Assembly (NCBI RefSeq): GCF_025639885.1
Contig: NZ_CP106738.1
Span: 310,001-374,000 of the forward strand
Direction: 5' to 3'
DNA length: 64,000 nucleotides
DNA from: Roseovarius pelagicus
GTDB lineage: Bacteria > Pseudomonadota > Alphaproteobacteria > Rhodobacterales > Rhodobacteraceae
Under the pieces are notes generated by a model. The model was not told the origin of the DNA. It searched no databases and saw only the letters and a list, made by a program, of their open reading frames with translations. Made by a program: the position numbers and the translations under genes. Of the stretch, positions 25,861 to 52,958 are shown in pieces (position 1 is the stretch's first letter; each line of letters begins with the position of its first letter).

Positions 25861-27084
25861 ATGAGCCTCGACGCCCCCAAACTCAAAGCCAAAGATGCCC
25901 CCGATCTGGGAAATTTTGACTGGCAGGATCCGTTTCGCCTGAACGATCAGCTCGAAGAAGACGAGCGGATGATCGCACAGAGCGCGCGCAGTTTTGCGCA
26001 GGAAAAGTTGCAGCCCCGCGTAATCAAGGCTTATGCCGAAGAAACCGTTGCGCCCGAGTTGTTCGCCGAGATGGGCGAAATGGGCCTGTTGGGTACGACC
26101 ATTCCAGAGGAATATGGTGGGCTGGGCGGCGGTTATGTCGGCTACGGTCTGGTCGCGCGCGAGATAGAGCGTGTTGACAGCGGATACCGGTCGATGATGT
26201 CCGTGCAATCGAGCCTCGTGATGTATCCGATCTACGCCTATGGCAGCGAAGAGCAGCGGCAGAAGTATTTGCCGGGTCTCGCTGCTGGCACATTGATTGG
26301 GTGCTTTGGCCTGACAGAGCCCGATGCGGGCAGTGACCCGTCGGGCATGAAAACCCGCGCGGTAAAGACCGATGGCGGCTATCGTCTGAACGGGTCGAAA
26401 ATGTGGATTTCCAACAGTCCCATCGCCGACGTGTTCGTTGTCTGGGCCAAATCCGACGCGCATGACGGCAAAATTCGTGGATTCGTTCTGGAAAAAGACA
26501 CCAAGGGCCTTAGCGCGCCGAAGATCACCGGCAAGCAAAGTCTGCGCGCCTCTGTCACCGGTGAAATCGTGTTGAAGGATGTCGAAGTTGGCGAAGACGC
26601 GTTGCTGCCCAATGTCGAGGGGCTGAAAGGTCCGTTTGGCTGTCTCAACCGTGCGCGCTATGGCATCGCATGGGGGGTTATGGGCGCAGCCGAATTCTGC
26701 TGGCACGGGGCACGCCAATATGGGCTGGACCGCCATCAGTTCCGCAAGCCATTGGCACAGACGCAGCTGTTTCAGTTGAAACTGGCCAACATGCAGACCG
26801 AAATCACGCTGGGCCTGCAGGCGGCACTGCGGGTGGGGCGCCTGATGGATGATGCCAATGCGGCGCCAGAGATGATTTCGCTGATCAAGCGTAACAACTG
26901 TGGCAAGGCGCTGGATATTGCGCGCATGTCCCGCGACATGCATGGCGGCAATGGCATTTCCGAAGAATTCCAGGTGATCCGTCACATGATGAACCTTGAG
27001 ACCGTGAACACCTATGAGGGGACGCATGACGTGCATGCGCTGATCCTCGGGCGGGCGCAAACCGGGCTGCAGGCGTTTTTCTGA
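25861..27084 (+). CDS. gcdH: Glutaryl-CoA dehydrogenase (acyl-CoA dehydrogenase family)
   Basis: GcdH oxidatively decarboxylates glutaryl-CoA to crotonyl-CoA at the end of lysine, hydroxylysine and tryptophan degradation. The 407-residue flavoprotein has FDWQDPFRLNDQLEEDERMI, VQSSLVMYPIYAYGSEEQRQ, CFGLTEPDAGSDPSGM, and GSKMWISNSPIADVFVVWAK. The C-terminal active-site Glu (about 386) is in NTYEGTHDVHALILGRA. Arg in GCLNRARYGIAWG is typical of the glutaryl-CoA subgroup. ATG 25861 is used, and upstream frame overlaps the LysR promoter. Other acyl-CoA dehydrogenases look similar, but the overall match favours GcdH. Confidence 0.93.
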   Translation: MSLDAPKLKAKDAPDLGNFDWQDPFRLNDQLEEDERMIAQSARSFAQEKLQPRVIKAYAEETVAPELFAEMGEMGLLGTTIPEEYGGLGGGYVGYGLVAREIERVDSGYRSMMSVQSSLVMYPIYAYGSEEQRQKYLPGLAAGTLIGCFGLTEPDAGSDPSGMKTRAVKTDGGYRLNGSKMWISNSPIADVFVVWAKSDAHDGKIRGFVLEKDTKGLSAPKITGKQSLRASVTGEIVLKDVEVGEDALLPNVEGLKGPFGCLNRARYGIAWGVMGAAEFCWHGARQYGLDRHQFRKPLAQTQLFQLKLANMQTEITLGLQAALRVGRLMDDANAAPEMISLIKRNNCGKALDIARMSRDMHGGNGISEEFQVIRHMMNLETVNTYEGTHDVHALILGRAQTGLQAFF

Positions 27085-27121
27085 TCCCTGTCCTAGGGCG
27101 CGCATGACGTGACACAAGTGC

Positions 27122-50370: not shown

Positions 50371-51933
50371 TCAGATCATTGCTTCGATCAGGAACGGCCC
50401 CGGTTCGGCTGCGGCATCTTCAATCGCGCGTATCAGGTCCTGAACGTCATCGACCCGGCGGCCCGGCACGCCCATTCCGCGCGCCATTGCGACAAAATCA
50501 AGCTCCGGCCGGTCGAGATTCAACATGCTCAACGCATCCGGGCCGGGCTGAGCACCAACATTGTGCAATTCACCCTTCAGGATCTCATAGGATTGGTTGG
50601 CCAAGATGATCGTGGTGACGTTCGATCCCTCGCGCGCCTGCGTCCATAGACCTTGTATCGTGTACATAGCTGATCCGTCGGCCTGCAGTGTGATTACCGG
50701 CCGGTCAGGGCAGGCGATCGCGGCCCCCGCCGACAGTGGTATCCCGATACCGATAGAGCCACCGGTGAGCGCCAGCCAGGTGTTCGGGTTGGCGACATCC
50801 CCAGCGGGGAAGGTATCGCCGCCCGATGAAACCGCTTCATCAATGATGATGGCATCCTCCGGCAGCGCATTGGCGAGGGCCGCTGCGATATTCTTTAACG
50901 TGATCGCACCGGCCTGCGGGCGTGCAGGCACAGCAGCATCGCGCGGCTTACTCGGCTGTGCGCCGATACGGTCGGCAAGGGCGGCCAGTGCCGCCGGACC
51001 ATCACCATCCAGTCCGGTCAGCGTGACTGTGTCACAGTTTTCGGGCAGTAGCAGGCTCGGCTTGCCGGGGTAGGCAAAGAAGGCAACCGGCGGGACGGCT
51101 TCGACCAAAACAGCGCGGCTGTAAGGGGCAAGACATTCCAATGCGGCGTTGATGGGGTACGGAATTTTTGAGATCGGCACGCGCCCCCGACCACGCTCCA
51201 TCCGACGGTTAGAGGTCGGCGCAAGGATATCCGCGCCGGTTTTCTCTGCGATGCCTTGCAGCAGAGCCATTGCCGCGACATCCTCAAGCACCGAATTTGC
51301 TGCAATGATGACGGTTCTGTCGCCGCTCTCCAACGCATGCACGGCGGCACTCAGCGTGTCTTCGTTCAGCGGGGTAGGGCCATCAGGCGCAATTTCGGCA
51401 GCGATCTTACCGCCGTCGTCCCAGCCAATATCAGCGGGTGCAACCAGCGTGGCGATCCGTCCGGGCGCCCCCTTGGCGACACGCAGCGCCTCCATTGCGT
51501 CCGCCGCGAAACTGGCCGCGTCACGCCCCGAACGCACCCAGTCCGAGAAAGGCGCGCAGGCACCCTCGACATCGGCCGACAATGGCGCATCGTATTTCTG
51601 GTGGCGCAGTGCGTGATCGCCGACCAGATTAACCATGGGCACGCGGGCCTTGCGCGCGTTGTGCAGGTTGGCCGCCGCATTGGCAAAACCGGGAGCAAGG
51701 TGCAACAGGGTCACGGCTGGCTTGCCAGCCATGCGTGCATAGCCATCAGCGGCACCGGTTACGACCCCTTCGAACAGACCCAGCACGCAATGCATCAGCT
51801 TAGTCCGGTCCAGCGCATCCACGAATTGCATCTCGGACGTGCCGGGGTTTGCAAAGCACACGTCAACGCCTGCGGAGTTCAGGCTGCGCACAACGCTCTC
51901 GGCGCCGTTCATTTCCTTTGGATGGCTGGTCAT
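50371..51933 (-). CDS. ThDP-dependent enzyme (acetolactate synthase / benzoylformate decarboxylase-like)
   Basis: The 520-residue protein has the three-domain POX/ALS fold. Glu of the cofactor-activating motif lies in LGLFEGVVTGAADGYARM. The central domain has APTSNRRMERGRG. The ThDP/metal motif is LQADGSAMYTIQGLWTQA followed by the Asn in ILANQSYEIL. The family decarboxylates or condenses 2-oxo acids. Lack of an obvious small subunit gene and its catabolic neighbours argue against branched-chain biosynthesis. It overlaps the HDAC2 gene by 4 bases. The substrate is unknown. A 2-oxo acid derived from the kinase-phospholyase pathway is a guess. Confidence 0.85.
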   Translation of the reverse strand: MTSHPKEMNGAESVVRSLNSAGVDVCFANPGTSEMQFVDALDRTKLMHCVLGLFEGVVTGAADGYARMAGKPAVTLLHLAPGFANAAANLHNARKARVPMVNLVGDHALRHQKYDAPLSADVEGACAPFSDWVRSGRDAASFAADAMEALRVAKGAPGRIATLVAPADIGWDDGGKIAAEIAPDGPTPLNEDTLSAAVHALESGDRTVIIAANSVLEDVAAMALLQGIAEKTGADILAPTSNRRMERGRGRVPISKIPYPINAALECLAPYSRAVLVEAVPPVAFFAYPGKPSLLLPENCDTVTLTGLDGDGPAALAALADRIGAQPSKPRDAAVPARPQAGAITLKNIAAALANALPEDAIIIDEAVSSGGDTFPAGDVANPNTWLALTGGSIGIGIPLSAGAAIACPDRPVITLQADGSAMYTIQGLWTQAREGSNVTTIILANQSYEILKGELHNVGAQPGPDALSMLNLDRPELDFVAMARGMGVPGRRVDDVQDLIRAIEDAAAEPGPFLIEAMI

Positions 51934-52958
51934 CGGGTCGCCTCGCGGAAGGTGGTGAGAAATGATTTCGCATTGTCTGCCAGCGATGGGCCCAGATATC
52001 CGCCTTCCTGCACCAACGCGGTAGGCAGGTTCATTGCCGCCAGCCGACGGGCCATTTCTGCAAAACCTTCGGGATAGACCGACACGCCAGCCAGGGGATC
52101 ATCTGCAGCCATGTCAAAGCCAAGCGAAACCACCAGCGCGTCAGCGCCGAACGCTTCGATCGCCGCAATCCCCTTGTCGAGCGCCGCCAGCACGGTGTCC
52201 TCGCTGGCCCCTTGCTCAAGCAGGATGTTCAGAGATTTCCCTGCCCCTTCGCCTTCGCCGGTCTCATCGGCATGCCCAAGAAAGAAAGTCGGGTAGGTGG
52301 TCGGGTCAGGGTGTAGCGAGCAAAAGAATATATCGCCCCGTTCATACAAAATATCGAGAGAACCATTGCCTGTATGCACGTCGATATCAATCAACGCGAC
52401 CTTCTTGAACGTCGACGTCATGTGATGCGCCACGATGCAGGCGTTGTTAAAGAAGCAGAATCCGTTGGAGCAATCGCGCATCGCATGATGTCCGGGTGGG
52501 CGGCACAGGGCATAGGCCGCGCGCGCGCCTGACATGACCTCTTCGGCGGCCTCAATGGCCGTTTGCGCCGACCAATATGCCGCCTCCCAAGTGCCTGCGG
52601 TCAGAGGCGTCGAGGTGTCCGTCATCCACCAACCGAGCTGGCCGTGAATGTCGCGCGGCTCCTTGCCGCGGCGCAAGCCGGGATGCGTCGTTGGGATCGC
52701 CAGTGCCTCGGTTCCGGCACTCTCAACGAATCGCGCATGGGCATCGGGCAGAAAATCCACGTAATCTGGATTATGCACAGCCTTGATCGGAGCAAGTCCG
52801 TGATCGCGCGGGGCGCTGATTTCGAATCCTTCACCTATTAGCATATCGCGCAGGATCTCAGCCCGTTGTGGTTGTTCCTGATGCGGCATCGCGGCCCCGC
52901 GCCGGAAATAGACCGTAGGCGCATGCCCCAATTGACGCGCATCGAAGAAGGCTTTCAT
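51930..52958 (-). CDS. Histone deacetylase-family amidohydrolase (acetylpolyamine amidohydrolase-like) 2
   Basis: The 342-residue enzyme has AYALCRPPGHHAMRDCSNGFCFFNNACIVA with catalytic His pair, VALIDIDVHTGNGSLDILYERGDIFF with Zn-binding Asp/His, and third Asp in VSLGFDMAADDPLAG. The N-terminus MKAFFDARQLGHAPTVYFRRG resembles acetylpolyamine amidohydrolases, which release acetate from acetylated di- and polyamines. It is the first gene of the leftward five-gene operon. ATG 52958 has AAAGG upstream, and an alternative start 8 codons earlier is less likely. It is paralogous to the HDAC1 protein. Both being in catabolic operons suggests N-acylated substrates. Confidence 0.9.
   Translation of the reverse strand: MKAFFDARQLGHAPTVYFRRGAAMPHQEQPQRAEILRDMLIGEGFEISAPRDHGLAPIKAVHNPDYVDFLPDAHARFVESAGTEALAIPTTHPGLRRGKEPRDIHGQLGWWMTDTSTPLTAGTWEAAYWSAQTAIEAAEEVMSGARAAYALCRPPGHHAMRDCSNGFCFFNNACIVAHHMTSTFKKVALIDIDVHTGNGSLDILYERGDIFFCSLHPDPTTYPTFFLGHADETGEGEGAGKSLNILLEQGASEDTVLAALDKGIAAIEAFGADALVVSLGFDMAADDPLAGVSVYPEGFAEMARRLAAMNLPTALVQEGGYLGPSLADNAKSFLTTFREATR

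What the first reader, a model, noticed from the sequence alone, without database searches (positions are those of the whole stretch)
25861..52958. Possible collagen-amino-acid catabolic island (hydroxyproline plus hydroxylysine)
A complete trans-4-hydroxyproline route (epimerase, FAD dehydrogenase, DHDPS-like deaminase, semialdehyde dehydrogenase) and 3-hydroxyproline enzymes lie next to an APH kinase resembling hydroxylysine kinase and a PLP enzyme of the 5-phosphohydroxylysine phospholyase clade. Both hydroxylated amino acids are characteristic of collagen. glutaryl-CoA dehydrogenase, the downstream enzyme for lysine/hydroxylysine carbon, is also nearby. The pairing of both pathways in one bacterial locus is, as far as I know, not a described unit.
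Basis: partly seen in the sequence, partly recalled or inferred. Interest (0 to 1): 0.75.

Follow-up and report, generated by a model that had tools for sequence, protein, structure and literature searches.

The report
Hydroxyproline cluster beside unrelated amino-alcohol operon
A marine bacterium carries a standard set of genes for eating hydroxyproline next to a separate, conserved but uncharacterised operon that probably breaks down an acylated amino alcohol; their closeness looks accidental rather than a collagen-eating unit.

Summary
The genes are as described. The hydroxyproline block looks complete (trans-4, trans-3 and cis-3 routes, importer, regulators) and matches clusters already in print. 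The kinase and PLP lyase are real and fall with the ammoniophospholyases, but not in a collagen unit. In 19 other Rhodobacterales loci, picked by kinase or lyase, the pair is the tail of a conserved operon: acetylpolyamine-amidohydrolase-like enzyme, TPP enzyme, M20 deacylase, kinase, lyase, divergent from a peptide-type ABC importer. None of the 19 shows hydroxyproline genes or glutaryl-CoA dehydrogenase in the 5-21 kb examined. Among 195 other genomes of the order, five carry this kinase type and 28 the epimerase, without overlap; among 59 others of the genus, eight carry the lyase and nine the epimerase, without overlap. Two Tritonibacter plasmids carry both, at least 300 kb apart. No gene after the lyase is conserved. 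Kinase-lyase pairs elsewhere sit with diol dehydratase, GabT plus succinate-semialdehyde dehydrogenase, or HisD-like genes, so the pair looks like a general amino-alcohol tool. Hydroxylysine, perhaps N-acylated, remains possible but unsupported. What may be new is the conserved operon, whose substrate is unknown.

The parts
25861..27084 (+). glutaryl-CoA dehydrogenase-like acyl-CoA dehydrogenase, divergent from a LysR gene; not shown to belong to either block
   Evidence: solved-structure matches 4w9u, 3gnc, 3eom; below NCBIfam cut-offs; absent from 19 module loci
28688..30394 (-). [quoted passage not shown]
   Evidence: NCBIfam equivalog passed; family activity reported in PMC5144071 (outline with abstract and start of introduction seen)
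30489..31196 (-). GntR regulator 1 of the hydroxyproline block
31295..34219 (+). amino-acid type ABC importer (binding protein, two permeases, ATPase), probable hydroxyproline importer
   Evidence: similar gene set beside hydroxyproline genes in Qingshengfaniella
34229..35260 (+). trans-3-hydroxy-L-proline dehydratase
   Evidence: NCBIfam equivalog passed
35351..36862 (-). aldehyde dehydrogenase, probable 2-oxoglutarate semialdehyde dehydrogenase
   Evidence: Pfam Aldedh; 82% to the gene in the R. pomeroyi hydroxyproline cluster
36965..37645 (-). GntR regulator 2 of the hydroxyproline block
   Evidence: 83% in R. pomeroyi cluster
37812..38828 (+). Ldh-family oxidoreductase, probable pyrroline-2-carboxylate reductase
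   Evidence: below all cut-offs; relatives beside hydroxyproline genes
38866..40107 (-). FAD D-hydroxyproline dehydrogenase (DadA-like)
   Evidence: 77% in R. pomeroyi cluster
40151..41095 (-). 4-hydroxyproline 2-epimerase
   Evidence: NCBIfam equivalog passed
41086..42042 (-). DHDPS-family deaminase of the trans-4-hydroxyproline route
   Evidence: 88% in R. pomeroyi cluster
42425..43447 (+). second acetylpolyamine-amidohydrolase-like protein (HDAC1), accessory; no match above 40% identity in the 19 module loci
43440..44510 (+). uncharacterised dehydrogenase-fold protein (X380)
   Evidence: no Pfam, NCBIfam or PDB sequence match; predicted lactate/malate dehydrogenase-like fold
44548..45870 (+). 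class III PLP protein near glutamate-1-semialdehyde aminomutases, below the cut-offs of the models shown
45892..46515 (-). HTH-cupin regulator
46612..47928 (-). PLP ammoniophospholyase (class III aminotransferase fold); PLP lysine K281 in TMGKP
   Evidence: present in 19 of 19 loci, which were chosen by kinase or lyase
47935..49086 (-). APH-family small-molecule kinase, HNDFNPHN and IDFGD motifs
   Evidence: present in 19 of 19 loci
49056..50346 (-). M20 (ArgE/DapE-like) deacylase, frameshifted by one base in this assembly
50371..51933 (-). TPP enzyme (passes the PRK07586 'acetolactate synthase large subunit' model)
   Evidence: 18 of 19 loci
51930..52982 (-). acetylpolyamine-amidohydrolase-like deacetylase (HDAC2), first gene of the operon
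   Evidence: 16 of the 17 loci whose sequence reaches it, the other (L099) keeping a 23-residue remnant
53122..53778 (+). GntR regulator 3, divergent
   Evidence: 12 of 19 loci
53890..58954 (+). peptide/nickel-type ABC importer (DppA, DppB, DppC, DppDF)

Best explanation
Two independent catabolic islands sit side by side. Island 1 (28.7-42.0 kb) is a standard hydroxyproline cluster. trans-4-hydroxy-L-proline is epimerised, oxidised, deaminated and oxidised to 2-oxoglutarate. trans-3- and cis-3-hydroxyproline are dehydrated and reduced to proline. Island 2 (46.6-59.0 kb) is a conserved operon for an acylated amino alcohol. A peptide-type ABC importer brings the compound in. An acetylpolyamine-amidohydrolase-like enzyme and an M20 enzyme remove acyl groups. 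The APH kinase phosphorylates a hydroxyl next to a terminal amine. The PLP lyase eliminates phosphate and ammonia to leave an aldehyde. The TPP enzyme handles a 2-oxo acid or aldehyde. Shown: gene content, family membership, conservation, lack of linkage. Inferred: every reaction of island 2 and its substrate; the reactions of island 1 rest on family knowledge.
For: Island 1: three NCBIfam equivalogs, similar gene sets in Ruegeria, Qingshengfaniella and SC52 without the kinase-lyase pair in the 25 kb shown, published pathway. Island 2: in 19 loci chosen by kinase or lyase, both are in 19, TPP in 18, HDAC2 and DppA-C in 16; DppDF in 15, or 16 after extending L101. L043 and L045 are cut by contig ends; L099 is a true exception with a 23-residue HDAC2 remnant and no importer in the next 14 kb or so. 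Lack of linkage: window-type kinase and epimerase overlap only in the own genome among 196; lyase and epimerase likewise among 60 of the genus. Nineteen other genomes hold the epimerase and any related kinase (E<=1e-30); six have both on one contig, the nearest about 123 kb apart. Both deacetylases are closest to acetylpolyamine amidohydrolases.
Against: In both strains of this species the two islands are adjacent (window; L039), so some local benefit cannot be excluded. The HDAC1-X380-aminotransferase genes lie between the islands, divergent from the epimerase operon, and could link them. Aureimonas plasmid pAU20a places a kinase next to CaiB and an acyl-CoA dehydrogenase 75% identical to the window's glutaryl-CoA dehydrogenase-like gene, a hint towards a glutaryl-CoA route there. 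Two Tritonibacter plasmids do carry both traits, unlinked. The importer and HDAC2 are not universal (L099) and M20 is missing or broken in L052 and L051. The absence counts are small: chance predicts only about one shared genome per sample.
Confidence: 0.75

Rival explanations
1. One reading: one collagen amino-acid island in which the kinase and lyase degrade free 5-hydroxylysine to 2-aminoadipate semialdehyde, feeding glutaryl-CoA dehydrogenase.
For: Right enzyme families; glutaryl-CoA dehydrogenase-like gene in the window; a saccharopine-dehydrogenase-family gene elsewhere in the genome, about 1.7 Mb away; Aureimonas neighbourhood.
Against: No linkage or co-occurrence; no conserved gene after the lyase; deacetylase, deacylase and TPP genes are not needed for free hydroxylysine; kinase-lyase pairs occur in unrelated contexts.
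Confidence: 0.07
2. Island 2 degrades an N-acylated hydroxylysine or hydroxylysine-containing small peptide, independent of island 1.
For: Peptide-type importer, deacylases suited to acylated lysine- or polyamine-like amines and a kinase-lyase pair of the right chemistry.
Against: Nothing distinguishes lysine from polyamine or other amino alcohols; no dedicated semialdehyde dehydrogenase in the conserved block.
Confidence: 0.15
3. Island 2 degrades a hydroxylated polyamine such as acetylated 2-hydroxyputrescine or hydroxyspermidine, with the lyase giving 4-aminobutanal and then GABA.
For: Both deacetylases resemble acetylpolyamine amidohydrolases; related kinase-lyase pairs sit near GabT and succinate-semialdehyde dehydrogenase, in one run of genes with GabT and near a PotD-like importer.
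Against: No GabT or aminobutanal dehydrogenase in the conserved Rhodobacterales block; of four importer binding proteins tested, one matched PotD at E<=1e-15, far below its cut-off.
Confidence: 0.2
4. The pair acts on ethanolamine or a simple amino alcohol (1-amino-2-propanol, 3-amino-1,2-propanediol).
For: The closest solved lyases are a bacterial phospholyase and human ethanolamine-phosphate phospho-lyase (organisms recalled); Shinella and Agrobacterium pairs, 77% and 74% identical in the lyase, sit with diol dehydratase subunits.
Against: Does not explain the conserved deacylases, TPP enzyme and peptide importer unless the substrate is an N-acyl amino alcohol.
Confidence: 0.25

Closest known systems
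Bacterial L-hydroxyproline gene cluster (LhpA-L; aconitase X as cis-3-hydroxyproline dehydratase, PMC5144071)
   Same: Epimerase, FAD dehydrogenase, DHDPS-type deaminase, aldehyde dehydrogenase, 3-hydroxyproline dehydratases, importer and regulators together
   Different: Nothing essential seen; here an unrelated operon lies next to it
Hydroxyproline neighbourhoods of proline-racemase-family enzymes, with growth of Rhodobacteraceae on hydroxyprolines (PMC4113996)
   Same: Same enzyme families; Roseovarius nubinhibens and Paracoccus denitrificans grow on trans-4-hydroxyproline in that paper (passages seen)
   Different: No kinase-lyase pair in the passages seen
Mammalian hydroxylysine kinase with ammoniophospholyases for phosphoethanolamine and 5-phosphohydroxylysine (Veiga-da-Cunha 2012; seen only as a citation, not held)
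   Same: Kinase plus PLP phospholyase; lyase in the same family as ETNPPL
   Different: Substrate in the window untested; bacterial operon adds deacylases, TPP enzyme and peptide importer
(R)-1-hydroxy-2-aminoethylphosphonate ammonia-lyase PbfA (PMC8154272, passages seen)
   Same: Lyase in the class III aminotransferase group, found by gene neighbourhood
   Different: Acts on a hydroxy-aminophosphonate and loses water, no kinase step; NCBIfam PbfA model scores 193 bits against a 525 cut-off here

Membership tests
L-hydroxyproline catabolic cluster | 4-hydroxyproline epimerase | tested here: met
   561.2 bits, cut-off 450
L-hydroxyproline catabolic cluster | trans-3- and cis-3-hydroxyproline dehydratases | tested here: met
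   630.7 vs 550 and 875.8 vs 700 bits
L-hydroxyproline catabolic cluster | D-hydroxyproline dehydrogenase, deaminase and semialdehyde dehydrogenase of the trans-4 route | tested here: inconclusive
   Broad family matches only; 77%, 88% and 82% identity to genes of the R. pomeroyi cluster
L-hydroxyproline catabolic cluster | Enzyme activities or growth on hydroxyprolines | not testable with these tools
   needs bench work
Class III ammoniophospholyase | Closest to characterised phospholyases rather than transaminases, catalytic lysine kept | tested here: met
   356 and 346 bits against 187 for the next entry; K281
5-phosphohydroxylysine phospholyase / hydroxylysine kinase | Substrate is 5-hydroxylysine | not testable with these tools
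   No specificity marker known to me; no phosphohydroxylysine phospholyase is named among the 35 solved-structure matches
5-phosphohydroxylysine phospholyase / hydroxylysine kinase | Conserved linkage to glutaryl-CoA dehydrogenase or other genes after the lyase | tested here: not met
   glutaryl-CoA dehydrogenase in 0 of 19 module loci; no conserved ORF after the lyase among 15 loci, by a crude ORF comparison. Linkage is not required for the activity.
Combined hydroxyproline-hydroxylysine island | Recurring linkage or co-occurrence of the two gene sets | tested here: not met
   overlap 1 of 196, the own genome; 1 of 60, the own genome; 0 of 19 loci; both present but unlinked in two Tritonibacter plasmids

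The most novel reading that the evidence does not exclude
The conserved operon deacetylase - TPP enzyme - M20 deacylase - kinase - ammoniophospholyase with its peptide-type importer is an undescribed catabolic pathway for an acylated hydroxy-amine common in the sea (N-acyl hydroxylysine, for instance from collagen or diatom silaffin-type peptides, or an acetylated hydroxy-polyamine), in which phosphorylation and PLP elimination replace transamination.
Probability: 0.3. Interest if true: 0.55.

Novelty: new variant of a known kind. Interest (0 to 1): 0.33.

Why it matters
It removes a false lead, a bacterial collagen amino-acid island, and points to a better one: a compact, well conserved operon of unknown substrate in marine Rhodobacterales whose chemistry can be tested with few compounds. 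If solved it would give a substrate to a branch of a widespread family of bacterial kinase-phospholyase pairs, annotated in the records seen here as phosphotransferase and aspartate aminotransferase family.

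Tried and rejected
Hydroxylysine as the stated substrate: searches of the held library listed no paper on bacterial hydroxylysine catabolism through this pair (titles and abstract starts seen only); the library is partial, so absence in print is not shown. A phospholyase search led to PbfA and to citations of the 2012 JBC paper, which is not held. Searches for hydroxyputrescine catabolism, acetylpolyamine clusters, class III amino-alcohol lyases, PHYKPL/ETNPPL and R. 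pomeroyi hydroxyproline genes listed nothing on this operon.

The Zn-hydrolase at 59161-60465 as part of island 2: related genes sit in the operon in L071, L075 and L076, but in none of the five Rhodobacterales flanks fetched, so it was left out. HDAC1-X380-aminotransferase as part of island 2: in the 19 loci no match to HDAC1 exceeds 40% identity, none to the aminotransferase exceeds 32%, and none to X380 appears. I take these to be the paralogues HDAC2 and lyase; L042 has a second deacetylase-like gene after the lyase, 40% to HDAC2. X380 is found in 1 of 196 genomes, the own one. Rfam scan of the window gave nothing. No solved structure matched the TPP enzyme at E<=1e-40. The structural look at X380 gave a dehydrogenase-like fold but no function.

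Genus-search hits G232 and G223 were not fetched. The comparison of ORFs after the lyase used longest non-overlapping ORFs and includes shadow ORFs. Distances to the epimerase in the 19 genomes with looser kinases were read by eye.

It also gave Tritonibacter distances along the record; round a circle the two traits are about 304 and 381 kb apart (from positions), and the text now says at least 300 kb.

Full report
WHAT IS THERE. The window lies in a 4.27 Mb genome held in 3 contigs. A 21 kb stretch is 99.0% identical to Pseudohalocynthiibacter aestuariivivens RR4-35, so I take the organism to be that species. Three hydroxyproline enzymes pass curated cut-offs: cis-3-hydroxyproline dehydratase, trans-3-hydroxyproline dehydratase and 4-hydroxyproline epimerase. 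The FAD dehydrogenase, DHDPS-like protein and aldehyde dehydrogenase match only broad families but are 77%, 88% and 82% identical to the corresponding genes of the Ruegeria pomeroyi DSS-3 cluster. The hydroxyproline block also holds an amino-acid ABC importer, an Ldh-family oxidoreductase and two GntR regulators. Qingshengfaniella alkalisoli has a similar set, including aconitase X and an ABC importer. The abstract and start of the introduction of PMC5144071 describe such clusters and the cis-3-hydroxyproline dehydratase. Passages of PMC4113996 report growth of Rhodobacteraceae on hydroxyprolines. This half of the finding is known biology.

THE KINASE AND LYASE. The 383-residue kinase is an APH-family protein with HNDFNPHN and IDFGD motifs (their meaning is recalled). 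The 438-residue PLP protein is nearest to two phospholyases with solved structures, 5g4i and 6tor, at 356 and 346 bits, with the next solved protein, a 4-aminobutyrate aminotransferase, at 187. The alignment keeps the PLP lysine. It is therefore an ammoniophospholyase by clade. The chemistry expected from the family is beta-elimination of phosphate from a phosphorylated vicinal amino alcohol, leaving aldehyde and ammonia (recalled). I know of no sequence marker that separates phosphoethanolamine from phosphohydroxylysine enzymes, and none was tested.

THE OPERON THEY BELONG TO. One scan of named genomes with the kinase gave 12 loci, one of them the same species. Further loci came from order (kinase) and genus (lyase) searches and were enlarged. 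After removing the same species and two repeated records, 19 loci remain, all chosen by kinase or lyase. At 55% identity or more, kinase and lyase are in 19 of 19, the TPP enzyme in 18, the M20 N-terminal query in 18 and its C-terminal query in 17, HDAC2 in 16, DppA, DppB and DppC in 16, DppDF in 15, and the divergent GntR in 12. L043 and L045 are cut by contig ends. DppDF of L101 was found on extension. L099 is a true exception: only 23 residues of HDAC2 remain before the TPP gene and no importer follows in about 14 kb. L052 lacks M20 and L051 has only pieces of it. No hydroxyproline enzyme and no glutaryl-CoA dehydrogenase was found in the 5-21 kb examined per locus; matches to HDAC1 reach at most 40% and to the aminomutase-like protein 32%, and X380 has none. 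Nothing downstream of the lyase is conserved: in a crude ORF comparison of 15 loci the most shared downstream cluster occurs in four.

LINKAGE AND CO-OCCURRENCE. In the same sample of 196 genomes of the order, kinases of the window type (59% identity or more) occur in six including the own genome, and the epimerase at E<=1e-60 in 29 including the own. Only the own genome has both. In 60 genomes of the genus the lyase at E<=1e-150 is in nine and the epimerase in ten, again with only the own genome in both. Chance alone would give about one shared genome in each sample, so this shows lack of association, not avoidance. Nineteen other genomes of the order sample hold the epimerase and some related kinase (E<=1e-30). 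In six of them both lie on one contig; the nearest pair is about 123 kb apart. Two Tritonibacter mobilis plasmids carry both a window-type kinase and the epimerase, at least 300 kb apart whichever way round the record. So both traits can share a genome without being linked. The adjacency in the window also exists in strain RR4-35, so it is a feature of the species, not an assembly error.

WHAT THE PAIR DOES ELSEWHERE. I opened 14 of the 302 plasmid records that match the kinase; two of them carry little or no annotation there. Neighbours include diol dehydratase subunits with a sugar importer (Shinella, Agrobacterium), GabT with succinate-semialdehyde dehydrogenase (an E. coli plasmid), histidinol-dehydrogenase-like proteins and cupins (Aureimonas, Microvirga), short-chain dehydrogenases, and the deacetylase, Zn-hydrolase and peptide-importer set (Chelatococcus, Comamonadaceae). 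In the 11 of these loci that I searched with the window proteins, no hydroxyproline dehydratase, epimerase, deaminase or FAD dehydrogenase appears at E<=1e-8; the one aldehyde dehydrogenase match (31%) is the annotated succinate-semialdehyde dehydrogenase. One locus, Aureimonas pAU20a, has a gene 75% identical to the window's glutaryl-CoA dehydrogenase-like gene next to CaiB and the kinase. That is the only neighbourhood I have that favours a lysine-type route. The own genome holds a second kinase-lyase pair about 1.7 Mb away, with an SsuA-family importer binding protein and a short-chain dehydrogenase nearby.

HOW IT MOST LIKELY WORKS. Import through the peptide/nickel-type ABC system; removal of N-acyl groups by the HDAC2 protein, closest to acetylpolyamine amidohydrolases, and by M20; ATP-dependent phosphorylation of a hydroxyl next to a primary amine; PLP elimination to an aldehyde; further conversion involving the TPP enzyme. 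All steps are inferred. Candidate substrates are ranked in the rivals: simple or N-acyl amino alcohols, hydroxy-polyamines, N-acyl hydroxylysine, and last free hydroxylysine in a collagen unit.

VERDICT. The conserved operon is worth a short biochemical screen. My library searches listed no description of it, but that library omits most subscription journals.

Noticed in passing
[not shown]
   Followed up: partly
49056-50346 (-): M20 deacylase gene carries a one-base insertion relative to strain RR4-35; either a sequencing error or a recent loss.
   Followed up: partly
27241-28642 (+): MATE efflux gene split over two frames; a second probable frameshift in the window.
   Followed up: no
L077 (Aureimonas pAU20a): Kinase next to CaiB CoA-transferase and a glutaryl-CoA dehydrogenase-like gene, with the lyase and a histidinol-dehydrogenase-like gene nearby: the one neighbourhood that could fit a glutaryl-CoA route.
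   Followed up: partly
L069 4259-11348; L070 4265-11354: Shinella and Agrobacterium kinase-lyase pairs (lyase 77% and 74% identical to the window's) in an apparent operon with propanediol/glycerol dehydratase subunits and a sugar importer.
   Followed up: no
42425-45870 (+): HDAC1, X380 and an aminomutase-like PLP protein form an apparent operon divergent from the epimerase operon; possible third small island between the two.
   Followed up: partly
L099 13947-14015: In genome G204 the operon breaks off inside HDAC2, leaving a 23-residue remnant and no importer nearby, while TPP, M20, kinase and lyase remain.
   Followed up: partly
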